Assembly: GCF_000526515.1 (NCBI RefSeq)
Contig: NZ_JAGF01000001.1
Location: 2,170,001 to 2,234,000, forward strand
Reading direction: 5' to 3'
Length of the DNA: 64,000 nt
Origin: Cellulomonas sp. KRMCY2
Lineage (GTDB): Bacteria; Actinomycetota; Actinomycetes; Actinomycetales; Cellulomonadaceae
The notes under the pieces are model-generated. The model worked only from the letters and a program-made list of their open reading frames with translations, was not told the DNA's origin and did not search any database. The translations under genes and the position numbers were made by a program. Below are positions 5,295-19,054 of this stretch, piece after piece (the first letter of the stretch is position 1; each line of letters starts with the position of its first letter).

Positions 5295-7530
<2,236 letters not shown>

Positions 7531-7565
7531 GCGGCACCCGCCCCCGCACGACCGAAGGGCTGTCC

Positions 7566-8399
7566 ATGGCACGGGAGATCGACGTCGACGCCGTCACGGC
7601 GCTGATCACGCACGTCGCAGACACTGTCGTGACCCCGCGGTTCCGCGACCTGCGCGACGGCGACGTCAGCGAGAAGTCCCCCGGTGACCTGGTCACCGTG
7701 GTGGACCTGGCCGCCGAGGCAGCGCTCGTCGAGGGTCTGACGATGCTGGGCCGCGGGATCCCGGTCGTCGGCGAGGAGGGGGTTGCGGCCGACCCGCGAC
7801 TGCTCGACGTGATCGCCGGGGCCGAGCAGGTCTGGGTCGTCGACCCGATCGACGGCACCCAGGCGTTCGTCGAGGGCCTGCCGGATCATGCCGTGATGGT
7901 CGCGCTCGTCGAGCGTGGCCGGGCCGTGGGCGGCTGGATCTGCCTGCCGCAGCACGAGCAGATGTTCGTCGCGATGCGCGGCGCCGGGGCATGGTGCAAC
8001 GGCGATCGGCTGGCCCGGCCCGCCCCTGACCTCACGGCACTGCGCGGTGGGGTCGCGACCTCGTTCCTGAGCGGCAGCGCGGACGGCCTGCCGACCGGGC
8101 TGCGCGAGCAGGTCGAGCCCAGGATCGCCGCCATCGGTCCCGCTGCGTACCCGAGCCTGCGGCTGTGGTCGGGTGCGACCTACGCCCGGATCGCGTCGGG
8201 GCAGGAGGACTTCGCGTTCTACTGGCGCACCCACCCGTGGGACCACGCAGCGGGGGCCGTCCTGCTGCGTGAGGTCGGTGGGGTGTCCCGGCGGCTCGAC
8301 GGGTCGGACTACCGCGCTGACGACGCGCGCTCGGGCCTGGTCGGTGCGGCATCGGCCGAGGCCGCGGACGCCGTGATCGCAGGTCTCGGGCTCGGCTGA
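7566..8399 (+). CDS. Inositol monophosphatase family protein
   Basis: A 277-residue Mg-dependent phosphatase of the IMPase/FBPase fold. Metal-site motifs are visible in order: VVGEEG near residue 65, VVDPIDGTQAFVEGL near 97-110, and HPWDHAAGAVLLREVGG near 225. Family members dephosphorylate inositol phosphate, histidinol phosphate or similar sugars; the sequence alone does not choose between these. It lies 35 bases after guaB and may be read from the same message. The ATG was chosen for its position and full-length fit. Confidence 0.88.
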   Translation: MAREIDVDAVTALITHVADTVVTPRFRDLRDGDVSEKSPGDLVTVVDLAAEAALVEGLTMLGRGIPVVGEEGVAADPRLLDVIAGAEQVWVVDPIDGTQAFVEGLPDHAVMVALVERGRAVGGWICLPQHEQMFVAMRGAGAWCNGDRLARPAPDLTALRGGVATSFLSGSADGLPTGLREQVEPRIAAIGPAAYPSLRLWSGATYARIASGQEDFAFYWRTHPWDHAAGAVLLREVGGVSRRLDGSDYRADDARSGLVGAASAEAADAVIAGLGLG

Positions 8400-9303: not shown

Positions 9304-10428
9304 GTGAGCAACGAGATCGAGATCGGCCGCGGCAAGCGCGGTCGCCGGGCCTACTCCTTCGACGACGTCGCCGTGGTGCCCTCGCGCCGCACGCGCGATC
9401 CCGAGGAGGTCTCGGTCGGCTGGCAGATCGACGCCTACCACTTCGACCTGCCGATCGTCGCCGCGCCGATGGACTCGGTGATGAGCCCGGAGACGGCTGT
9501 GGCCCTCGGCAGGTTCGGCGGCCTGGGTGTGCTCGACCTCGAGGGTCTCTGGACCCGGTACGAGGACCCCGTGCCGCTGCTCGCCGAGATCGCCGCCCTC
9601 GACGGGGCGAGCGCGACGGCCCGCATGCAGCAGATCTACGCGGCGCCGATCATCCCCGAGCTGATCACCCAACGGCTGCAGGAGATCCGCCGTGCCGGCG
9701 TGACGGTCGCCGGTGCGCTGTCCCCGCAGCGGACCCAGCAGTACTGGAAGCACGTCGTCGACGCCGGGGTCGACCTGTTCGTCATCCGGGGCACGACCGT
9801 CTCGGCCGAGCACGTGTCGGGGCGCGCCGAGCCGCTCAACCTCAAGCGCTTCATCTACGAGCTCGACGTCCCGGTGATCGTCGGCGGGGCCTCGACGTAC
9901 ACCGCCGCGCTGCACCTGATGCGGACCGGCGCGGCCGGCGTCCTGGTCGGCTTCGGCGGTGGCGCGGCGCACACCACGCGGGTCACCCTCGGCATCCACG
10001 CGCCGATGGCCAGTGCCGTGGCGGACGTCGCGGCCGCACGCCGTGACTACCTCGACGAGTCGGGCGGCCGCTACGTCCACGTGATCGCCGACGGCGGGGT
10101 CGGGCGGTCCGGGGACCTCGTCAAGGCGGTCGCCTGTGGCGCCGACGCCGTGATGGTCGGTGCCGCCCTCGCCAGGGCCGCCGAGGCCCCGGGCGCGGGC
10201 TGGCACTGGGGCCCCGAGGCGCACCACCCGCAGCTCCCACGCGGTGAGCGGGTCGAGGTCGGTACCGCCGGCACCCTCGAGGAGATCCTGTTCGGCCCCG
10301 GTCGACAGGCGGACGGCACGCTGAACCTGGTCGGTGCGCTCCGCCGGGCGCTCGCGACCACCGGCTACTCCGACCTCAAGGAGTTCCAGCGCGTCGAGGT
10401 CGTCGTCTCGCCCTACCAGCCGCACTGA
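9304..10428 (+). CDS. guaB3: GuaB3 family IMP dehydrogenase-related protein
   Basis: A 374-residue TIM-barrel protein of the IMPDH/GMP reductase superfamily without CBS domains. It has YSFDDVAVVPSRR at the start and LPIVAAPMDSVMSP after it, and the phosphate site near HVIADGGVGRSGDLVKAV. The loop that carries the catalytic Cys in GuaB reads GGGAAHTTRV here, and the protein's only Cys is in KAVACGADAV, a structural position. It therefore probably lacks normal IMPDH chemistry; its role is unresolved. The GTG at 9304 lies six bases behind a TAGCCT box (9292-9297), so it is probably leaderless. Confidence 0.9.
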   Translation: MSNEIEIGRGKRGRRAYSFDDVAVVPSRRTRDPEEVSVGWQIDAYHFDLPIVAAPMDSVMSPETAVALGRFGGLGVLDLEGLWTRYEDPVPLLAEIAALDGASATARMQQIYAAPIIPELITQRLQEIRRAGVTVAGALSPQRTQQYWKHVVDAGVDLFVIRGTTVSAEHVSGRAEPLNLKRFIYELDVPVIVGGASTYTAALHLMRTGAAGVLVGFGGGAAHTTRVTLGIHAPMASAVADVAAARRDYLDESGGRYVHVIADGGVGRSGDLVKAVACGADAVMVGAALARAAEAPGAGWHWGPEAHHPQLPRGERVEVGTAGTLEEILFGPGRQADGTLNLVGALRRALATTGYSDLKEFQRVEVVVSPYQPH

Positions 10429-10699
10429 CCCCACCCCGACCTCGGGCCACCCGACCCGACCCGACCCGGCTCCACCAGAACCCCGTGCGCCCCGGTGCAC
10501 GGGGTTCTGGCGTTCCCCACCGGGTCGCCGCAGGGGTTGTGGGGTCCCCCGCACGCTGGTTTGGTGGGTCTGTAGGCGAGAGCTGTCCGCCCCATGCTCC
10601 CCGCGGGACCGGTGGACCTGACGGCTCGTGGGGGGACGGGAGGGCGGCTCGCCCGGGTGCGGATGCGGCGGTGGAGGGTCTCAGGACCCGGACCGGGTG
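10429..10699. other. Intergenic region between guaB3 and the fructose PTS operon
   Basis: This stretch holds a terminator hairpin at 10475-10510. I see no other gene, RNA or repeat from 10511 to the promoter at 10700. Short open frames here lack a ribosome site and codon bias. Its 5' part (10447-10470) is a CCCGA-rich simple sequence. Confidence 0.5.
10475..10510 (+). terminator. Terminator after guaB3
   Basis: A perfect 14-base stem (10475-10488 against 10497-10510) with an eight-base GC-rich loop, 47 bases after the guaB3 stop. It separates guaB3 from the PTS operon. Confidence 0.8.
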
Positions 10700-10752
10700 T
10701 TGACAACGGACGCAAACGGAAGTAAACAAAGCCATAACAACATCCGAACGGA
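10700..10752 (+). promoter_or_regulatory. Promoter and likely DeoR-type operator of the fructose PTS operon
   Basis: TTGACA (10700-10705), 17 bases, then TAAACA (10723-10728). AACGGA occurs three times, at 10705-10710, 10715-10720 and 10747-10752. The stretch from -35 to the small open frame is closely similar to the region 15950-16020 before the intact deoR gene, including the AACGGAA core, ACAAAGCCAT, ACAACATCCGAAC and TGCGGAG. Shared operators for one DeoR repressor are the simplest reading. Confidence 0.7.
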
Positions 10753-10767
10753 CAATGCGGAGCGACT

Positions 10768-10866
10768 GTGAACGCGACCGAGGGGCAGCGGACGACCCTG
10801 AGCAGGGTCAGCAGGGCACGTCTCGACGACGGTGTCCCGGCCGGACCGCGGACGGTGCAGACATGA
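10768..10866 (+). pseudogene. DeoR regulator remnant: 32-codon open frame fused from both gene ends
   Basis: GTG at 10768 opens 32 codons that end in TGA overlapping the kinase ATG as ATGA. The first part (ATEGQRTTLS then ARLDDGV) matches the start of the intact DeoR at 16018 (ATERQQEILSKARLDGRV), and the last residues (AGPRTVQT) match its end (AGPRVVRA). The ribosome site TGCGGAG and its spacing are also the same. The best explanation is an in-frame internal deletion of about 220 codons that kept the start, the stop and the coupling to the next gene. It cannot encode a repressor, but may still be translated as a coupling leader. Confidence 0.78.
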
Positions 10867-11813
10867 TCATCACAGTCACGCTCAACCCGAGCCTCGACCG
10901 GACGTTCGACACCGAACGGCTCCTGGTCGGCGAGGTGAACCGGGCGCTCCGCACCCACCTGGACGCCGGCGGCAAGGGCATCAACGTCTCGCGCGCGCTC
11001 CAGCAGAACGGCATCGCGACGGTCGCCGTGTTCCCGATCGGGGGGGCCGACGGGCCGGTCCTCGTCTCCGAGCTCGAGCGGCACGGCGTCCCGGCGCACC
11101 CGGTGCCGATCGCGGGCGCGATCCGGAGCAATGTCACGATCACGGTCCCGGACGGCGGGACCACGAAGGTCAATGCCCCCGGACCCCGGATCGACGACGA
11201 CGAGCAGGCGCGCATCCTCGCTGCCGTCGACGAGCACCTGCGCCCGGGCACGACCTGCGTGATCGCCGCCGGCAGCCTGCCCGAGGGCGTGCCGACGTCG
11301 ATCCTCAGCCGGCTCGCAGCCCTCGCGGCCGCCCACCACGTCCCGTTCGCGCTCGACACGTCCGACGCCCCGCTGGCCGCCGCGGTCAGGGCCGGCGGCC
11401 TCGCGGTCGTCAAGCCGAACGAGCACGAGCTCGCCGAGCTCGTGGGGCGCGAGCTCCACACGGTCGGCGACGTCCGCGACGCCGCCCGGGAGGTCGTCGC
11501 GCTCGGCACGGAGGCGGTGCTGGTGAGCCTGGGTGCGCACGGTGCACTGCTCGTGACCGCCGAGGCCTGCTGGTGGGCAGGCGGCGACCCGATCGTGCCG
11601 GTGTCGACAGTGGGCGCCGGGGACTCGACGTTGGCGGGCTACGTCGCCGCCGACGGTCGAGCACCGTCCGAGCGGCTCAGGACGGCGGTGGCCTGGGGCC
11701 GCGCCGCCGTCCAGCTCCCGGGGACCGAGATGCCACGCCCCGAGCAGATCGACCTCGCCGCCGTCACGGTCGTCGAGGAGCCCAACCCGAGCCTGACCCT
11801 GAAGGAGCTGTGA
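10863..11813 (+). CDS. fruK: 1-phosphofructokinase (PfkB family)
   Basis: A 316-residue kinase converting fructose 1-phosphate to fructose 1,6-bisphosphate. It begins MIITVTLNPSLDRT, has the sugar-binding GGKGINVSRAL (about 36-46), the second PfkB signature region near VVKPNEHELAEL and the anion-hole/catalytic VGAGDSTLAGY. Length fits FruK. It is the first complete gene of a five-gene fructose PTS operon and receives the product of the EIIA/EIIBC transporter encoded next. Its ATG overlaps the stop of the DeoR remnant; EIIA follows after one base. Confidence 0.93.
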   Translation: MIITVTLNPSLDRTFDTERLLVGEVNRALRTHLDAGGKGINVSRALQQNGIATVAVFPIGGADGPVLVSELERHGVPAHPVPIAGAIRSNVTITVPDGGTTKVNAPGPRIDDDEQARILAAVDEHLRPGTTCVIAAGSLPEGVPTSILSRLAALAAAHHVPFALDTSDAPLAAAVRAGGLAVVKPNEHELAELVGRELHTVGDVRDAAREVVALGTEAVLVSLGAHGALLVTAEACWWAGGDPIVPVSTVGAGDSTLAGYVAADGRAPSERLRTAVAWGRAAVQLPGTEMPRPEQIDLAAVTVVEEPNPSLTLKEL

Positions 11814-11814
11814 C

Positions 11815-12273
11815 GTGAGCACCAACCCTCTGATCACCCCCGAGCTCGTCGCGCTCGACATCGTCGCGACCGACCGTGACGACGTCACGCGTCAGCTCAT
11901 CGACCTGCTCGCCGCTGCCGGCCGGGTGACCGACGCGGACGGTTTCCACGCCGACGTGCGGGCGCGCGAGGCGCAGATGGCGACCGGCATGCCCGGTGGG
12001 ATCGGCCTGCCGCACGCCCGCTCGGAGCACGTGACAGTCCCGAGCCTGGCTGTCGGTCGCGTCCCGTCAGGCGTCGACTTCGGCGCGCCGGACGGTCCGG
12101 CCACGCTGATCTTCCTGATCGCGGCACCTGCGAGCGGTGACTCCGATCACCTGAAGATCCTGGCCGCGCTCGCGCGCCGGCTGGTCCACGAGTCGTTCCG
12201 CACATCGATCAAGCAGGCCCCTGATGCCGTCACGGTCGCCGACATCGTCACACGAGAGGTGGTCCCGTCATGA
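11815..12273 (+). CDS. fruA: PTS fructose EIIA component
   Basis: A 152-residue soluble phosphocarrier of the fructose/mannitol EIIA family. GIGLPHARSEHV contains the phosphorylated His67; LIFLIAAP and HLKILAALARRLV are typical neighbours. It takes phosphate from HPr and hands it to the EIIB part of the next gene product. The GTG is one base after fruK and the stop overlaps the EIIBC ATG as ATGA. In many bacteria this domain is fused to EIIBC or HPr; here it is separate. The symbol fruA is used for the transporter as a whole. Confidence 0.92.
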   Translation: MSTNPLITPELVALDIVATDRDDVTRQLIDLLAAAGRVTDADGFHADVRAREAQMATGMPGGIGLPHARSEHVTVPSLAVGRVPSGVDFGAPDGPATLIFLIAAPASGDSDHLKILAALARRLVHESFRTSIKQAPDAVTVADIVTREVVPS

Positions 12274-13799
12274 AGTTCGTCGCGGTCTCGTCATGCCCCA
12301 CAGGTATCGCTCACACCTACATGGCCGCCGAGGCACTCGAGCAGGCGGCCCTCGCAGCCGGCCACGAGTGCGTCGTCGAGACCCAGGGTGCGGCCGGCTC
12401 GACCCCGCTCGACCCGGCGATCATCGCCGCGGCCGACGGCGTCATCTTCGCTGCGGATCTCGAGGTCCAGGACAAGGGTCGTTTCGCCGGCAAGCCGACG
12501 GTCGACGTCGGCGTCAAGAAGGCCGTGCACGACGCACCGGGCGTCATCGCCGCCGCGGTCGAGGCCGTCAAGGCAGCGCCGGCCGGGACAGCGGGCTCGG
12601 TCGCCGCCGCTCCCGCCGCGCCGGTGCGGCAGGTCGGCACCGCGACCCGGATCCGCCAGTACCTGATGACCGGTGTCTCGTACATGATCCCGTTCGTCGC
12701 CGCCGGCGGCATCCTCATCGCCGTCGGCTTCCTGCTCGCATCGGTCGCCTGGGGCAAGGACGGGGCCATCGCGGTCACCGCCGTCGTGGACGGCTTCGAC
12801 GGCGGGGCGTTCACCAGCTGGATCTCCGACGGGTTCTCGCTGGGATCCCTGCAGTCCTGGGCCGTGCTGCTCTTCTGGATCGGCAAGTGGGCCTTCAGCT
12901 TCCTGGTGCCGGCGCTCTCCGCGTACATCGCGTACGCGATCGCCGACCGCCCCGGGATCGTTCCCGGGTTCGTCGGCGGGTTCGCTGCCGGCCTGGTCGG
13001 TGCGGGCTTCCTCGGCGGTATCGCCACCGGCTTCCTCGCGGGCTTCGTCGCCCTGTGGATCTCCCGGTGGAAGGTCGCCAAGGGCGTGCGCGGTGTCATG
13101 CCGGTGGTCGTCACCCCGCTGCTGTCCGTGATGGTCGTCGGCGTCGCGACAGCCCTGGTCATCGGCCCGCCGATGAAGGCCGTCAACGACGGCCTGACCT
13201 CCTGGCTGAACGGCCTGGGCACCTCCGCCCTCGTCCCGCTCGGCATCGTGCTCGGCCTGATGATGTGCTTCGACCTCGGCGGACCGGTCAACAAGGTCGC
13301 CTACGTCTTCGCCACCACGGGCCTGGCCAACGCCGCGACCAGCAGTGACAAGCCCGCGGTCATCATGGCCGCCGTCATGGCTGCCGGCATGGTCCCGCCG
13401 CTGGCGATCGCCCTCGCGACGGTGGTCCGGCCCAGGATGTTCTCCGAGGCGGAGCGCGAGTCCGGGAAGTCCGCCTGGCTGCTCGGTGCGTCGTTCATCT
13501 CCGAGGGCGCCATCCCGTTCGCGGCTGCCGACCCCGTCCGGATGATCCCGTCGTTCATGCTCGGTGGCGCCGTCACCGGTGGCCTCTCGATGGCCTTCGG
13601 CTCCGGCATCCTCGCCCCGCACGGGGGCGTCTGGGTCTCGGCCCTGGCCAACAAGCCGGTCCTGTTCCTGCTCGCGCTCCTCGTCGGAATGGTCGTCTCG
13701 GCTGTCGCGCTGGTCCTGGCGAAGAGCATCGGGCGAAACCCGGACGAGTCCGTCCTCGAGTCCGTGGAGAGCGTCGCTGCTCTCACCGGCGCTCGCTGA
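12270..13799 (+). CDS. fruA: PTS fructose EIIBC component
   Basis: A 509-residue membrane transporter. The EIIB domain (1-105) has the phosphorylated Cys9 in VSSCPTGIAHTYMAAEAL. An Ala/Pro-rich linker (about 105-120) leads to EIIC (125-490), which begins RIRQYLMTGVSYMIPFVAAGG. EIIC has repeated long hydrophobic helices and conserved FDLGGPVNKVAY and EGAIPFAAADP. It imports fructose and releases fructose 1-phosphate, the FruK substrate. Overlap with EIIA and close spacing to HPr indicate one operon. Confidence 0.95.
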   Translation: MKFVAVSSCPTGIAHTYMAAEALEQAALAAGHECVVETQGAAGSTPLDPAIIAAADGVIFAADLEVQDKGRFAGKPTVDVGVKKAVHDAPGVIAAAVEAVKAAPAGTAGSVAAAPAAPVRQVGTATRIRQYLMTGVSYMIPFVAAGGILIAVGFLLASVAWGKDGAIAVTAVVDGFDGGAFTSWISDGFSLGSLQSWAVLLFWIGKWAFSFLVPALSAYIAYAIADRPGIVPGFVGGFAAGLVGAGFLGGIATGFLAGFVALWISRWKVAKGVRGVMPVVVTPLLSVMVVGVATALVIGPPMKAVNDGLTSWLNGLGTSALVPLGIVLGLMMCFDLGGPVNKVAYVFATTGLANAATSSDKPAVIMAAVMAAGMVPPLAIALATVVRPRMFSEAERESGKSAWLLGASFISEGAIPFAAADPVRMIPSFMLGGAVTGGLSMAFGSGILAPHGGVWVSALANKPVLFLLALLVGMVVSAVALVLAKSIGRNPDESVLESVESVAALTGAR

Positions 13800-13832: not shown

Positions 13833-14102
13833 ATGTCGCAGCGAACCGCCGTCGTCGCCTCACGCGTGGGACTCCACGCACGGCCGGCCTCGATCTTTAC
13901 CCAGGCCGTCGCGGCCTCGGGCGTGGACGTGACCATCGCCAAGCCGGGCGAGGAGGGGATGGATGCCTCGAGCATCCTGATGGTCATGGCGCTGGGGGCC
14001 GGCCCCGGTCAGACGGTCGTCCTCGAGGCTGACGGGCCGGAGTCCGACCGGGTGCTGGACGAGCTCGTCGTCCTGCTCGAGACCGATCTCGACGCCCAGT
14101 AG
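13833..14102 (+). CDS. ptsH: Phosphocarrier protein HPr (first copy)
   Basis: An 89-residue HPr. His15 in RVGLHARPAS is the site phosphorylated by enzyme I. The regulatory Ser region is DASSILMVMALG (Ser47 aligns with Ser46 of Bacillus HPr). The ATG has AAGG nearby. It lies between EIIBC and enzyme I, ten bases before the latter, so the operon brings its own general PTS proteins. A second, clearly related HPr is at 20962. Confidence 0.95.
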   Translation: MSQRTAVVASRVGLHARPASIFTQAVAASGVDVTIAKPGEEGMDASSILMVMALGAGPGQTVVLEADGPESDRVLDELVVLLETDLDAQ

Positions 14103-14112
14103 GTGGTGCCCG

Positions 14113-15804
14113 GTGAGTGAGCAGAGCAGGGTGCTCCAGGGCGTCGGCGTCGGTCGCGGCGCGGTCTGGGGTCCGGTGGCCCGGGTCCGTCCGGCGCCGA
14201 CGGTTCCCGCGAACGAGCTCGTTCCCGCCGACCCCGCGGCGGCGAAGGAGATGGTCGAGCAGGCCTTCGCCGACGTCGCCGCGGGGCTCCGGGCGCAGGC
14301 CGGCCGGGCCGCGGGAACGCTTGCCGAGGTCCTCTCGGCGACCGCACAGATGGCAGACGACCGGGCGCTGCGCAAGCAGGTCCTCGGTCGGATCGACAAG
14401 GGTGAGCCGCCGCTGACGGCACTGTCGGCGGTGGTCGGGGACTTCGCGTCGATGTTCACCTCAGCGGGTGGGTACCTCGCCGAGCGGGTCACGGACCTGG
14501 TCAGCGTGCGCGACCGGGTGGTCGCCCGATGTCTGGGCGTGCCCGAGCCCGGCGTCCCGCCGCTCGAGCGCCCCGCGGTGATCGTGGCCGTCGACCTGTC
14601 GCCCGCGGACACCGCTGCGCTCGACCTCGAGATGGTGCTCGGCATCGTGATCGAGCAGGGTGGCCCGACCGGCCACACGGCGATCATCGCCGGCCAGCTG
14701 GGACTGCCGTGCGTCGTCCGTGCTGCCGGCGCGTCGGACCTCCTGGACGGCGAGATCGTGGCTGTCGACGCGGCAGCGGGCACCGTCGTCGTCGGGCCCG
14801 ACGCCGTCACGAAGGCCCGCGTCGAGGCACGGCGGGTCGCGCTCGCGGCGCTGGCCGAGAACCTCGCCGACGGTGCCACGGCTGACGGCCACCCGGTGGC
14901 CCTGCTGGCCAACATCGGCACCGCCGAGGATGCCGAGCGGCTCACCGACGCCGCCGTCGAGGGTGTCGGCCTCTTCCGTACCGAGGTCCTCTTCCTGGGC
15001 CATGCGACCGCGCCCACCGAGGACGCCCAGGCTGCCGCGTACACCCGGGCGCTGGCCGCGATGGGTGGCCGCAAGGTGGTCGTCCGGACGCTCGATGCGG
15101 GGGCGGACAAGCCGCTGGCGTTCGTCACGAGGGCGGGGGAGGAGAACCCGGCCCTCGGGGTCCGCGGCTTCCGGCTCGTCCGGGCGGCCGAGGATCTCCT
15201 GCTCACCCAGCTCGCTGCGATCGCCCGAGCCGCGCACGAGACCGGCACCCGGCCGTGGGTGATGGCCCCGATGATCGCGACGGTCGACGAGGCCGCGCAG
15301 TTCGCGGCCATGGCGCGGGCGGTCGGGATCGAGCAGGTCGGGGTGATGGTCGAGGTCCCGTCGGCGGCTCTGCGTGCCCGGGACGTGCTCGCGGAGGTCG
15401 ACTTCGTCTCGCTCGGCACGAACGACCTCGCGCAGTACACGATGGCGACGGACCGGCTGCTCGGCGATCTCGTCGACCTGCTCGACCCGTGGCAGCCGGC
15501 GGTGCTCGACCTGGTCGCCGCGACCGCGTCGGCCGGGGTGGAGCTCGGCAAGCCGGTCGGGGTGTGCGGCGAGTCCGCGGCCGATCCCGTGATGGCCCTG
15601 CTGCTGACCGGCCTGGGCGTGACCAGTCTGTCCATGTCCCCGGCGGCCGTCCCGGGCGTGCGCTTCGCCCTGGCTCGGCACACCCTCGCCGGCTGCCAGG
15701 AGATCGCCGTGGCGGCCCGTGCGGCCAGGACGGCGCAGCAGGCGCGTGCGGTGGCGCTGGCGCTGGTCGACCCCGAGGTCCGCGATGTGCTCGCCCTGGG
15801 CTGA
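14113..15804 (+). CDS. ptsI: PTS enzyme I, phosphoenolpyruvate-protein phosphotransferase (first copy)
   Basis: A 563-residue cytosolic enzyme that moves phosphate from PEP to HPr. The N-terminal helical/HPr-binding part leads to the active His188 in GGPTGHTAIIAG. The C-terminal PEP-binding barrel has GLFRTEVLFLG, RTLDAGADKPL, SLGTNDLAQYTMATDR and the proton-donor Cys in GVCGESAADP. It is nearly the same length and sequence as the copy at 21237, including the ends. It closes the fructose operon; a hairpin follows at 15828. Confidence 0.96.
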   Translation: MSEQSRVLQGVGVGRGAVWGPVARVRPAPTVPANELVPADPAAAKEMVEQAFADVAAGLRAQAGRAAGTLAEVLSATAQMADDRALRKQVLGRIDKGEPPLTALSAVVGDFASMFTSAGGYLAERVTDLVSVRDRVVARCLGVPEPGVPPLERPAVIVAVDLSPADTAALDLEMVLGIVIEQGGPTGHTAIIAGQLGLPCVVRAAGASDLLDGEIVAVDAAAGTVVVGPDAVTKARVEARRVALAALAENLADGATADGHPVALLANIGTAEDAERLTDAAVEGVGLFRTEVLFLGHATAPTEDAQAAAYTRALAAMGGRKVVVRTLDAGADKPLAFVTRAGEENPALGVRGFRLVRAAEDLLLTQLAAIARAAHETGTRPWVMAPMIATVDEAAQFAAMARAVGIEQVGVMVEVPSAALRARDVLAEVDFVSLGTNDLAQYTMATDRLLGDLVDLLDPWQPAVLDLVAATASAGVELGKPVGVCGESAADPVMALLLTGLGVTSLSMSPAAVPGVRFALARHTLAGCQEIAVAARAARTAQQARAVALALVDPEVRDVLALG

Positions 15805-15949: not shown

Positions 15950-16002
15950 TTGACACCGGGCAGAAACGGAACTAGACAAAGCCATTACAACATCCGAACA
16001 GA
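15950..16002 (+). promoter_or_regulatory. Promoter and likely operator of the deoR-hexitol PTS operon
   Basis: TTGACA (15950-15955), 17 bases, then TAGACA (15973-15978). AACGGA at 15965-15970 and AACAGA at 15997-16002 match two of the AACGGA repeats of the other PTS promoter. Autorepression by the DeoR protein encoded just downstream is likely, but the exact operator bases are not known. Confidence 0.68.
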
Positions 16003-16017: not shown

Positions 16018-16779
16018 GTGTACGCAACGGAGCGTCAGCAGGAGATCCTCAGCAAGGCCCGCCTCGACGGTCGTGTCGAGGTCAAGGACCTCGCCGAGAC
16101 GCTCGACGTGACCCCCGAGACGGTGCGTCGGGACCTGACCCTGCTCGAACGCCGGGGCCTGCTCAGGCGGATGCACGGCGGGGCGATCCCGGTCGAGCGG
16201 CTGGGCATCGAGCCCGCGGTCGCGGACCGCGAGGGCCGGATGGCGGGCCAGAAGGAGCGGATCGCCAAGGCCGCCCTCGACGAGCTGCCGGACGGTGGCG
16301 CGATCATCCTCGACGCGGGCACGACGACGATCCGGCTCGCCGAGCTGCTGCCCACCGACCGCGAGCTGACGGTCGTGACCCACAGCCTGCCGATCGCGAT
16401 GCTCCTGGCCACCCGGACCAACATCACCCTGCACCTGCTCGGCGGGACCGTCCGCGGCCGGACCCTCGCCGCCGTCGGCACCTGGGCCGAGCGGGCGATG
16501 GCCGACGTGTACGTCGACGTGGCCTTCCTCGGCACCAACGGCATCACCGTCGAGCGGGGCCTGACCACCCCCGACCTCGCTGAGGCCGGTGTCAAGCGGG
16601 CGCTCGTGGCCTCCGCCCGCCGGAGCGTCGTGCTGGCCGACCACACCAAGTTCGGCCGCACCGACTTCGCGCAGGTCGCCCCGCTGAGCGCGATCGACAC
16701 GGTCATCACCGACCTCGACCTCGAGCCCGAGCTCGCCGACGAGATCGAGGCAGCCGGCCCGCGGGTGGTGCGCGCATGA
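16018..16779 (+). CDS. DeoR-family sugar-phosphate-responsive repressor
   Basis: A 253-residue regulator. The N-terminal DeoR helix-turn-helix is QQEILSKARLDGRVEVKDLAE with ETVRRDLTLLERRGLLRRMHGGA. The C-terminal effector domain (about 75-250) has the DeoR sugar-phosphate isomerase-like fold, with DAGTTTIRLAELL and FLGTNGITVERGL. Fructose 1-phosphate is the usual effector when such genes sit beside fruK; here a hexitol phosphate is also possible. The start at 16018 is preferred over GTG 16012 because TGCGGAG lies five bases upstream and the paralogous region keeps only this GTG. The stop overlaps the kinase ATG as ATGA. Confidence 0.9.
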   Translation: MYATERQQEILSKARLDGRVEVKDLAETLDVTPETVRRDLTLLERRGLLRRMHGGAIPVERLGIEPAVADREGRMAGQKERIAKAALDELPDGGAIILDAGTTTIRLAELLPTDRELTVVTHSLPIAMLLATRTNITLHLLGGTVRGRTLAAVGTWAERAMADVYVDVAFLGTNGITVERGLTTPDLAEAGVKRALVASARRSVVLADHTKFGRTDFAQVAPLSAIDTVITDLDLEPELADEIEAAGPRVVRA

Positions 16780-17741
16780 TCATCACCGTCACGCTCAACC
16801 CGAGCCTCGACCGCACCGTCGAGGTGGACCACCTCGTCCGGGGCGAGGTCCTGCGCGCACGTGGCACGCACCTGCACCCCGGTGGCAAGGGCGTCAACGT
16901 CACCCGGGCCCTGCTCGCCAACGGTGTCCCGAGCCGCGCCGTCCTGCCGATCGCCGGCTCGGACGGCCAGCAGCTCGTCGAGCTGCTGGCCGCCGAGCGG
17001 GTGGATGCCGTGATCGTGCCGGTCTCCGGGCGGACCCGGTCGAACATCACGATCGCCGAGGGCGACGGCACCGTCACCAAGATCAACGAACCCGGTGCGG
17101 CGCTGACGGCCGAGGAGCTGGAGCTCGTGGTCGCGCGCGCGCTGGCCGACTCCCACCCGGGCGGCTGGGTCGTCCTGTGCGGCAGCCTGCCGCCGGGTGT
17201 GCCGGCCGACCAGTACGCGCAGATGACGCGCCGGCTCGCCGACGCGGGAGTCCGCGTCGCGGTGGACACCAGCGGTCCCGCACTGGCCTACGCCGTGACC
17301 GCGGAACCCGACCTGATCAAGCCGAACGCCGAGGAGCTGGCCGCTGCCGTCGGCCGCCCGCTGTCGTCCCGGGCCGACGTCGTCGCCGCGGCACGACAGC
17401 TGCGGGACGCCGGCGCGCGACGCGTGCTCGTGAGTCTCGGCTCGGCCGGCGCCCTGCTCGTGGACGACGACGGCGTCGCCGTCGGGGAGTCGATCGCGCT
17501 CACCCCGCGCAGCAGCGTGGGGGCAGGTGACGCCTTCCTCGCGGGGTTCCTGGCGGCCGAGCGGTCCGCCGGGCACGGCCGCGCGGCCCTGGCCACGGCC
17601 CTGGCCTGGGGCGCCGCCGCCGTCCAGCTCCCGGGCAGCCAGATGCCCGGACCCGCTGACATCGACCCGGGAGCCGCGCACGTGCTCCCGGCCGAGGATC
17701 TCGACGCACGGCTCGACGAGCCGCTCGTCGGCACGGGGTGA
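16776..17741 (+). CDS. PfkB-family hexose-phosphate kinase (1-phosphofructokinase or tagatose-6-phosphate kinase type)
   Basis: A 321-residue paralogue of the kinase at 10863, starting MIITVTLNPSLDRT, with GGKGVNVTRALLANG, LIKPNAEELAAAVG and VGAGDAFLAGF. By family it phosphorylates fructose 1-phosphate, tagatose 6-phosphate or fructose 6-phosphate. In this operon it probably acts on the keto-sugar phosphate made by the zinc dehydrogenase encoded four genes later. An 83-base gap holding a GAAGGAG site separates it from the EIIC gene. Confidence 0.85.
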   Translation: MIITVTLNPSLDRTVEVDHLVRGEVLRARGTHLHPGGKGVNVTRALLANGVPSRAVLPIAGSDGQQLVELLAAERVDAVIVPVSGRTRSNITIAEGDGTVTKINEPGAALTAEELELVVARALADSHPGGWVVLCGSLPPGVPADQYAQMTRRLADAGVRVAVDTSGPALAYAVTAEPDLIKPNAEELAAAVGRPLSSRADVVAAARQLRDAGARRVLVSLGSAGALLVDDDGVAVGESIALTPRSSVGAGDAFLAGFLAAERSAGHGRAALATALAWGAAAVQLPGSQMPGPADIDPGAAHVLPAEDLDARLDEPLVGTG

Positions 17742-17824: not shown

Positions 17825-19054
17825 ATGAGCGACTACACACCTACGGTCACCGGATCGGGGGTGAAGGCCACCGTGCAGCGGTACGGCGGCTACCTCGCCG
17901 GCATGGTCATGCCCAACATCGGTGCCTTCATCGCCTGGGGCCTGATCACCGCGATCTTCATCGAGGTGGGCTGGTGGCCGCAGGCCGAGATCGGTGGCTA
18001 CGGCGACTACACGGCAACCAACCCGGATGTCGGCCTGACCGGCGTCGGCCTGGTCGGACCGATGATCACCTACCTGCTCCCGCTGCTCATCGGCTTCACC
18101 GGTGGCCGCATGGTGCACGGCAACCGGGGTGGCGTCGTCGGCGCGATCGCCACGGTCGGCGTCATCGTCGGCACGGGCTCGCCGATGTTCCTCGGCGCCA
18201 TGCTCATCGGCCCGGCGGCCGCGTGGATCATCAAGAAGATCGACGGCTTCGTCCAGGAGCGCACCAAGCCCGGCTTCGAGATGCTCGTCGACAACTTCAC
18301 CGCCGGCATCGTCGGCGGCGGTATGGCCATCGCCGGCCTGCTGGCGATCGGCCCCGTCGTCGACACGATCATGGGCTGGGCCGAGTCCGGCGTGAACTTC
18401 CTCGTCGAGAACAGCCTGCTGCCGCTCGCCTCGCTCATCATCGAGCCCGGCAAGATCCTGTTCCTCAACAACGCGATCAACCACGGCGTGCTGACCCCGC
18501 TCGGTGCGGCGGAGTCCGCGGACGCCGGCAAGTCCATCCTGTTCATGCTCGAGACCAACCCGGGCCCGGGCCTCGGCATCCTGGTCGCGTTCATGTTCTT
18601 CGGCCCGCGTCTGATGCGTGCGTCGACCCCGGCCGCGATCATCATCCACTTCTTCGGCGGGATCCACGAGATCTACTTCCCGTACGTCCTGATGAAGCCG
18701 CAGCTGGTGGTGGCCGCGATCGCCGGTGGCGCCGCGGGCATCTTCACCAACATCCTGACCGGTGCGGGTCTGGTTGCCTCACCCGCCCCGGGCAGCATCT
18801 TCGCCTACATCACGATGTCGCCCCGGGGTGGCCTCCTGCCCGTCCTGCTGAGCGTCGTCGTCGCGACGGTCGTCAGCTTCGTCGTCGCGTCGCTGCTCCT
18901 GGGCCTCGGCCGGGGTGCGAAGGCCGAGGCGGAGGCCGAGCAGGCCGAGACCGACCTCGTCGCCGCCCAGGCGGAGGTCGCCGAGCGCAAGGCCGCCTCG
19001 AAGGCCGGCGTCACCACGGCGGACGCACCCGCGCCCACCGACACCATCCGCTGA
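17825..19054 (+). CDS. PTS mannitol-type EIIC component
   Basis: A 409-residue membrane permease. It begins VQRYGGYLAGMVMPNIGAFIAWGL and carries the family marks KILFLNNAINHG and FFGGIHEIYFPYVLM. About eight to ten hydrophobic segments span residues 20-365, followed by a charged Ala/Glu-rich tail that replaces the EIIB domain fused in classic MtlA. The EIIB and EIIA parts are separate genes directly downstream. The substrate is a hexitol, most simply mannitol; sorbitol or galactitol cannot be excluded. The start ATG has GAAGGAG upstream. Confidence 0.88.
   Translation: MSDYTPTVTGSGVKATVQRYGGYLAGMVMPNIGAFIAWGLITAIFIEVGWWPQAEIGGYGDYTATNPDVGLTGVGLVGPMITYLLPLLIGFTGGRMVHGNRGGVVGAIATVGVIVGTGSPMFLGAMLIGPAAAWIIKKIDGFVQERTKPGFEMLVDNFTAGIVGGGMAIAGLLAIGPVVDTIMGWAESGVNFLVENSLLPLASLIIEPGKILFLNNAINHGVLTPLGAAESADAGKSILFMLETNPGPGLGILVAFMFFGPRLMRASTPAAIIIHFFGGIHEIYFPYVLMKPQLVVAAIAGGAAGIFTNILTGAGLVASPAPGSIFAYITMSPRGGLLPVLLSVVVATVVSFVVASLLLGLGRGAKAEAEAEQAETDLVAAQAEVAERKAASKAGVTTADAPAPTDTIR

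What the first reader, a model, noticed from the sequence alone, without database searches (positions are those of the whole stretch)
10768..10866. A DeoR repressor gene reduced to a 32-codon leader that keeps both of its ends
The open frame before fruK matches the intact DeoR gene at 16018 at its start (ATEGQRTTLS, ARLDDGV), at its stop end (AGPRTVQT versus AGPRVVRA), in the ribosome site TGCGGAG and in the ATGA junction to the kinase. About 220 internal codons are missing, in frame. Keeping frame and junction suggests selection for translational coupling to fruK, or a very recent deletion. It also implies that the fructose operon is now controlled by the repressor of the other operon.
Basis: partly seen in the sequence, partly recalled or inferred. 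Interest (0 to 1): 0.75.

Follow-up and report, generated by a model that had tools for sequence, protein, structure and literature searches.

The report
Repressor gene shrunk to translation leader
In this actinobacterium the repressor gene that normally precedes a fructose kinase gene has shrunk to a 32-codon stub that keeps its promoter, its start and its overlap with the kinase, perhaps because the stub still brings ribosomes to the kinase; similar stubs occur in a few other species.

Summary
Confirmed: the 32-codon frame at 10768-10866 is the remnant of a DeoR repressor gene. Promoter, ribosome site and first codons match the intact deoR at 16018 (80% over 108 nt, E 6e-21); the last 30 nt match the deoR end (2 of 1000 shuffles as good). 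In 92 of 118 kinase starts examined in the family deoR stands there, 83 with an exact stop/start overlap. It is neither unique nor very recent: the sister FruK lineage G016 (69% identity) has a 39-codon leader in the same place (weakly deoR-like), Actinotalea sp. M2MS4P-6 a 35-codon stub keeping both deoR ends, an Actinoallomurus MAG a 34-codon stub before a mannitol-type kinase. The kinase tree needs three changes. All four leaders keep the coupling frame, and each genome has an intact deoR elsewhere. A 22-mer in the leader promoter recurs only before deoR in the genome, so control in trans by that DeoR is likely. Best reading: a redundant repressor gene pared down to what kinase translation needs. 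Translational coupling is inferred; Shine-Dalgarno and folding tests did not show that fruK needs the leader.

The parts
10474..10511 (+). GC-rich hairpin after the IMPDH-like gene, probably its terminator
   Evidence: sequence; sub-threshold Rfam F6 match, 25 bits against a cut-off of 46; the terminator scan listed none
10700..10728 (+). -35 TTGACA (10700) and -10-like TAAACA (10723), 17-nt spacing, of the leader promoter
   Evidence: my reading of the sequence; the generic promoter scan did not list it; matches the deoR promoter at 15950/15973
10723..10744 (+). 22-mer TAAACAAAGCCATAACAACATC, putative DeoR operator
   Evidence: pattern with up to 3 mismatches hits only this site and 15973-15994 in the whole genome, control 0
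10755..10762 (+). leader ribosome-site region ATGCGGAG (GTGCGGAG before deoR)
10768..10866 (+). 32-codon leader ORF, remnant of a deoR gene; stop overlaps fruK start (ATGA)
10863..11813 (+). fruK, 1-phosphofructokinase (PfkB family)
   Evidence: Pfam PfkB 2.3e-41; name from operon context
11815..12273 (+). fructose-type PTS EIIA
   Evidence: Pfam PTS_EIIA_2 3e-29
12270..13799 (+). fructose-type PTS EIIBC
   Evidence: Pfam PTS_IIB and PTS_EIIC
13833..14102 (+). HPr
   Evidence: Pfam PTS-HPr 1.2e-21
14113..15804 (+). PTS enzyme I
   Evidence: Pfam PEP-utilizers families
15973..15994 (+). second copy of the putative operator, in the deoR promoter
16018..16779 (+). intact deoR (253 codons), mtl-type, start of the second operon
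   Evidence: Pfam DeoRC 2.1e-53, HTH_DeoR 2.5e-15; tree
16776..17741 (+). second PfkB kinase, start overlapped by the deoR stop (ATGA)
   Evidence: Pfam PfkB 6.3e-44
17825..19054 (+). mannitol-type PTS EIIC (mtlA-like), second operon
   Evidence: Pfam PTS_EIIC 3.9e-19; 'mannitol-type' is my naming

Best explanation
Ancestrally these PTS operons began promoter-deoR-kinase, with the deoR stop overlapping the kinase start (shown for relatives). Where a cell held a second, equivalent DeoR, the copy before fruK became dispensable as a protein (inferred). The repressor body was lost; kept were the promoter and operator-like site, the deoR ribosome site and start, an open frame of 30-40 codons, and the deoR 3' end, which holds the kinase's own ribosome-binding letters (shown by sequence for the window; less clear in G016 and Actinoallomurus). 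The stub now works as a translation-delivery leader: ribosomes start at 10768, stop at the ATGA and reinitiate on fruK (inferred). The fru operon is repressed in trans by the DeoR encoded at 16018, through the shared 22-bp site (inferred). The peptide itself probably has no function: its codon-position G+C bias has relaxed.
For: Homology of both ends and promoter. deoR adjacent in 92 of 118 family kinase starts, exact overlap in 83. Leaders elsewhere: G016 (39 codons), G001 = Actinotalea M2MS4P-6 (35 codons; 5' and 3' both 0 of 1000 shuffles as good), Actinoallomurus MAG (34 codons). Kinase tree: window and G016 sisters at 100/99 inside a five-row clade (97/96) whose other three rows have deoR adjacent; the leader label needs three changes and starred branches force three. 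Frame: four of four leaders in the coupling frame; random frame times open frame 0.0025 for four, 0.012 for window, G001 and Actinoallomurus as three events (from values). Intact DeoR elsewhere in each of the four: window 16018; G016 just upstream; G001 contig C19; Actinoallomurus about 6 kb from the leader on the other strand; the three Cellulomonadaceae ones lie in one clade of mtl-type operons (SH-aLRT 98). Operator-like 22-mer at exactly two sites in 4.5 Mb. Pooled leader G+C by codon position 0.79/0.64/0.82 against 0.75/0.48/0.96 in the window's deoR. Predicted accessibility of the kinase site rises when the leader is held open in three of four leaders. In C. glutamicum another DeoR-type protein, SugR, represses cg2118(deoR-type)-fruK-ptsF at an A+C-rich 21-bp site with conserved ACAAAC and AACA (PMC2222622, section 10 and passages read).
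Against: Anti-Shine-Dalgarno pairing before the kinase is not weaker where it overlaps deoR (mean -9.3, n 83) or a leader (-9.5, n 4) than in non-overlapping kinase genes (-8.3, n 12), so fruK could start alone. In the window the predicted accessibility of the fruK site is already 0.62 and falls to 0.46 when the leader is held open. The ATGA overlap is partly automatic, because fruK begins ATG ATC and so always contains TGA in that frame. A frame of this length stays open in 0.73 of shuffles, and the window's leader was chosen for being in frame. G016's leader is only weakly deoR-like (342 and 259 of 1000 shuffles as good at 5' and 3'; 908 of 49,562 and 4 of 1,484 in the anchored test). The Actinoallomurus leader is moderate at 5' (30 of 1000) and not significant at 3' (793 of 1000) by shuffles, though better in the anchored test (20 of 49,562; 2 of 1,484). 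Three changes on the tree are formally also one gain and two losses, and 39 of 500 label shuffles need as few. No leader was found in 396 genomes of the order with two stricter patterns, so it is rare.
Confidence: 0.65

Rival explanations
1. Neutral relic: the deoR body was deleted and nothing selects for the frame; the leader is a decaying pseudogene and fruK is translated from its own ribosome site, which happens to lie in the old deoR 3' end.
For: fruK's own anti-SD pairing is as strong as in non-overlapping genes; open frames of this length are common at this G+C (0.61-0.73 of shuffles); codon bias of the leaders has relaxed; the window's fruK site is predicted fairly open without leader translation.
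Against: Four of four leaders are in the coupling frame and the three tested have an SD-like site before their start; the window/G016 pair has kept a leader since an old split (path 0.59 changes per site).
Confidence: 0.25
2. Partial duplication: the leader is not what remains of a resident fru deoR but was built when promoter and 5' end of the mtl deoR were copied in front of fruK (or converted by it).
For: The best match of the leader promoter is the window's own mtl deoR (96.9 bits), including the spacer between ribosome site and start.
Against: Almost as good matches are deoR promoters of G009 (95.1 bits) and G003's fru deoR (89.7 bits), so the similarity is genus-wide; the leader also keeps a deoR 3' end; the sister clade has deoR in the slot.
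Confidence: 0.12
3. The true fruK start is the in-frame ATG at 10755, giving a 36-residue N-terminal extension, and the leader ORF is not translated.
For: The fruK frame is open back to ATG 10755.
Against: Kinase frames are open far upstream in many relatives too (open frames up to 747 codons for a 316-residue match), where that stretch is deoR, so openness says little; the kinase matches begin at MI(I/V)TVT; ATG 10755 lies inside the leader's ribosome site.
Confidence: 0.03
4. Attenuation leader peptide that senses an amino acid or translation stress and controls a terminator.
For: Short ORF at the head of an operon.
Against: No terminator-like site in 10400-11000, no Rfam family at its gathering score, the ORF overlaps the structural gene, and by eye the four peptides share no run of one codon.
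Confidence: 0.02

Closest known systems
Short upstream ORF that delivers ribosomes by translational coupling (reviewed in J Bacteriol 2025, PMC12548453; three passages read)
   Same: A short ORF without a known protein role lies at the start of a gene; its proposed only job is to drive translation of that gene.
   Different: Here the short ORF derives from a repressor gene that occupies the same slot in relatives; a term search of the review found no mention of pseudogenes.
deoR-fruK-PTS operons, e.g. cg2118-fruK-ptsF of Corynebacterium glutamicum (PMC2222622; section 10 and passages read)
   Same: Gene order, co-transcription of a DeoR-type gene with fruK, control by a DeoR-type protein encoded outside the operon.
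   Different: cg2118 is a full gene of 795 nt; here the resident deoR is reduced to 32 codons.
Pseudogenised redundant regulator (general knowledge)
   Same: Loss of a gene whose function a paralogue can take over.
   Different: Start, ribosome site, frame and stop/start junction are kept, on the tree in three separate places.

Membership tests
DeoR-family repressor | HTH_DeoR and DeoRC domains | tested here: not met
   Leader has no Pfam match; the intact copy at 16018 has both
Remnant of a deoR gene | Similarity to deoR at 5' end and promoter | tested here: met
   E 6e-21; 0 of 1000 shuffles
Remnant of a deoR gene | Similarity to deoR at 3' end | tested here: met
   2 of 1000 shuffles as good; 3 of 1484 anchored sites, itself included
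Remnant of a deoR gene | deoR in the same slot in relatives | tested here: met
   92 of 118 kinase starts
Translationally coupled uORF | Stop codon overlaps or adjoins the next start | tested here: met
   ATGA at 10863-10866
Translationally coupled uORF | Own ribosome site before the uORF | tested here: met
   GCGGAG, -5.8 kcal/mol, near that of the intact deoR, -6.1
Translationally coupled uORF | Downstream gene depends on it (weak or hidden ribosome site) | tested here: inconclusive
   Not weaker; folding against it in the window, for it in the three others
Translationally coupled uORF | Translation of the uORF shown | not testable with these tools
   No ribosome profiling data at hand
Regulation in trans by DeoR at 16018 | Shared operator | tested here: inconclusive
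   Shared 22-mer at two sites in the genome, one before each operon; that it is the operator is inferred
Attenuation leader | Terminator between leader and gene | tested here: not met
   None found

The most novel reading that the evidence does not exclude
Overlapping stop/start junctions constrain how genes can be lost: when the first gene of an operon becomes redundant, evolution repeatedly trims it to a minimal in-frame translation starter, so that a former repressor gene becomes a cis-acting translation element while a paralogue takes over as shared repressor of two sugar operons.
Probability: 0.45. Interest if true: 0.7.

Novelty: new variant of a known kind. Interest (0 to 1): 0.52.

Why it matters
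It gives a natural test of translational coupling: separate losses of the same gene that all stopped short of its ends. It suggests one source of short upstream ORFs (shrunken genes), and warns annotators that such stubs may be needed for expression of the next gene. It also shows a route by which two sugar operons can come under one repressor.

Tried and rejected
Expected that kinase genes overlapping deoR would have weaker Shine-Dalgarno sites than non-overlapping ones; the comparison went slightly the other way (Mann-Whitney p 0.045), so it is no evidence for coupling. RNA folding with and without an occupied leader: unpaired fraction of the kinase site went from 0.62 to 0.46 in the window, 0.26 to 0.46 in G016, 0.29 to 0.34 in G001, 0.26 to 0.37 in Actinoallomurus; no firm conclusion.

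Pattern scan of genome contigs (84,980 species; the window's own genome may be left out): 37 stretches, read. By eye, 2 are short leaders (L100, the same operon as G001:C12, and L117), 18 match inside DeoR-type C-termini of long frames, 16 look unrelated, and L124 reads as a DeoR C-terminus whose fetched stretch ends 86 codons upstream and was set aside. The pattern did not ask for a reading frame, covers leaders of about 24-43 codons only and needs a deoR-like 5' motif. Two stricter patterns (leaders of about 43-63 and 23-43 codons) in 396 genomes of the order: 0 of 396 each; only two genomes of the window's genus were in that sample and neither pattern could match the window's own leader.

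Rows without adjacent deoR in the family census (118 kinase starts in 116 loci, the window among them), 26 in all: three leaders (WIN, L038, L048); one contig edge (L045); 13 with another PTS gene or gap before the kinase (L040-L043, L055, L063, L065, L079, L080, L141, L179, L180, L184); L049 and L050 (deoR further upstream); L186 (deoR hit ends 62 nt away, a 253-codon frame overlaps); six unrelated or unclear (L086, L146, L185, L187, L188, L189). Nine deoR-adjacent rows were scored as non-overlapping; for at least one, L064, the deoR stop does overlap an ATGACC start.

Literature: (open PMC papers). None of the titles and abstract openings listed speaks of a deoR gene reduced to a leader; two searches listed 15 of 28 and 12 of 14 papers. 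Only PMC2222622 and PMC12548453 were opened, in part. Absence from print is claimed for these searches only.

Full report
Observation. The frame 10768-10866 reads VNATEGQRTTLSRVSRARLDDGVPAGPRTVQT* and its stop overlaps fruK's ATG at 10863. Searching the whole genome (4.5 Mb, one contig) with 10680-10880 returns, after itself, the promoter and 5' end of the intact deoR (80% over 108 nt, E 6e-21) and, separately, the deoR 3' end with the start of the second kinase (83% over 41 nt, E 6e-5; 23 of the 41 nt lie before the kinase). Shuffle tests: 5' coding part 0 of 1000 as good, last 30 nt 2 of 1000, promoter 0 of 1000. So both ends come from a deoR gene. The remnant has three extra codons near its start and lacks about 220 of the 253 deoR codons.

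Surroundings. Pfam identifies PfkB kinase, EIIA, EIIBC, HPr and enzyme I after the leader, then intact deoR, a second PfkB kinase and a PTS EIIC that I call mannitol-type. The generic promoter and terminator scan found nothing; the -35 TTGACA at 10700 and TAAACA at 10723 are my reading, backed by similar letters before deoR in relatives.

Relatives. The genus holds 19 genomes here; one, G001, has a contig of the same length (498,938) as Actinotalea sp. M2MS4P-6 and the same leader, so the window is taken to be an Actinotalea-like member of the Cellulomonadaceae (inference). fruK was sought in 221 family genomes, 111 with a match at E 1e-45 or better (an earlier search of 150 at 1e-30 had 62). 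From these lists I fetched 115 loci and, with the window, read 118 kinase starts: 92 have deoR adjacent, 83 of them with an exact stop/start overlap. The exceptions matter. G016, whose FruK is closest (69%), has an intact mtl-type deoR, then a second promoter-like stretch and a 39-codon frame VDVTQRQ... ending in the GTGA of fruK. G001 contig C12 has VYATERQQRITAQRRRPGRVDTTGPASAGPEVVPA* ending in the ATGA of its kinase; the relative G110 has an intact deoR with 23 of the same last 25 nt. The collection-wide pattern scan added an Actinoallomurus MAG with MYADEGLREISRGARAGRCVAGHPGRAGHRAVTA* before genes like pfkB, mtlA, IIA, mtlD and enzyme I (named by eye); its intact deoR sits about 6 kb away on the other strand, and its promoter resembles that of the leader by eye.

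History. In the kinase tree (62 rows) the window and G016 are sisters (100/99) within a five-row clade (97/96) whose other three rows have deoR adjacent; G001's kinase is sister to G110's (100/100), far away, and the Actinoallomurus one lies among mtl-type kinases (99/95). The leader label needs three changes and starred branches force three; formally that could be one gain and two losses, and 39 of 500 label shuffles need as few. I take it as three reductions, because regaining a full deoR in the same slot is less likely (inference); one of them is then older than the window/G016 split. G016's own leader is too diverged to prove deoR descent (342 and 259 of 1000 shuffles as good), so a separate origin there is possible; its promoter does match the window's (2 of 1000). 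In the DeoR tree (quick method) the DeoR proteins kept by the window, G016 and G001 fall in one clade of mtl-type operons (SH-aLRT 98).

Mechanism, shown and inferred. Shown: promoter, ribosome site, start, open frame and junction are kept; fruK's own ribosome-binding letters lie in the deoR 3' end (GGTGGTG in most intact examples printed, GACGGTG here). Inferred: ribosomes that translate the leader stop at ATGA and reinitiate. Frame statistics: with random frame and open frame, chance is 0.0025 for four leaders, 0.012 for three events, and 0.05 for the two (G001, Actinoallomurus) that a frame-blind scan returned (from values); the window's own leader was picked for being in frame. Suggestive, not decisive. 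The Shine-Dalgarno comparison does not help the coupling case; folding speaks for it in three leaders and against it in the window. The relaxed codon-position bias fits a peptide without function.

Control in trans. A 22-mer around the -10 region, TANACAAAGNCATNNCAACATC with up to three mismatches, occurs twice in the genome, before the leader and before deoR, and not in the reversed control. The genome gives seven matches to this DeoR including itself, the next best 46% identical. The motif resembles at its ends (ACAAA..., AACA) the A+C-rich SugR site of C. glutamicum, where SugR represses cg2118-fruK-ptsF from outside the operon (PMC2222622, section 10 read; comparison by eye). In that paper deletion of 674 of 795 nt of cg2118 had only a weak effect on transcripts of the cluster; FruK protein levels were not in the passages I read. 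G001's leader promoter shows no such motif by eye, so shared control is argued for the window only.

Comparison with the known. It would work like a short upstream ORF that delivers ribosomes, a role proposed in the 2025 review (PMC12548453, passages). It is no longer a DeoR repressor (no domain). What I did not find in five searches is a repressor gene that repeatedly shrinks to such a leader. Verdict: real; its origin is explained with high confidence, its function with moderate confidence; a new variant of a known kind.

Noticed in passing
L049 (G001:C19) and L050 (G008:C1), upstream of pfkB2: Intact deoR is separated from the kinase. In L049 a second promoter-like stretch (TTGACA...AACTAGACACAGGGATTACCAACG) and a kinase with its own start and short N-terminal extension follow; in L050 an EIIA match lies between.
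   Followed up: partly
L040-L043, L055, L063, L065, L079, L080: A third operon order: deoR, mtlD, mtlA, IIA, then fruK, often with its own AGGAGG-like site; in several the deoR stop overlaps an ATGAGC or GTGAGC start instead.
   Followed up: partly
L039 (G003:C22): Both operons present, each with an intact deoR, in the reverse order (mtl first, fru second) relative to the window.
   Followed up: no
L096 (G103:C1), about 6652-7604: The kinase match is split between two frames: a frameshift or a sequencing error.
   Followed up: no
L117, coordinates about 1000-1035 of the orientation read: A long palindrome TGATCACGAAACGGCC...GGCCGTTTCGTGATCA upstream of the leader promoter; role unknown.
   Followed up: no
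window 10474-10511: Hairpin after the IMPDH-like gene, with a sub-threshold Rfam F6 match (25 of 46 bits).
   Followed up: no
window 10755-10862: The fruK frame is also open back to an ATG inside the leader's ribosome site; of the three frames from the leader start, one couples, one stops early and one would fuse to fruK.
   Followed up: partly
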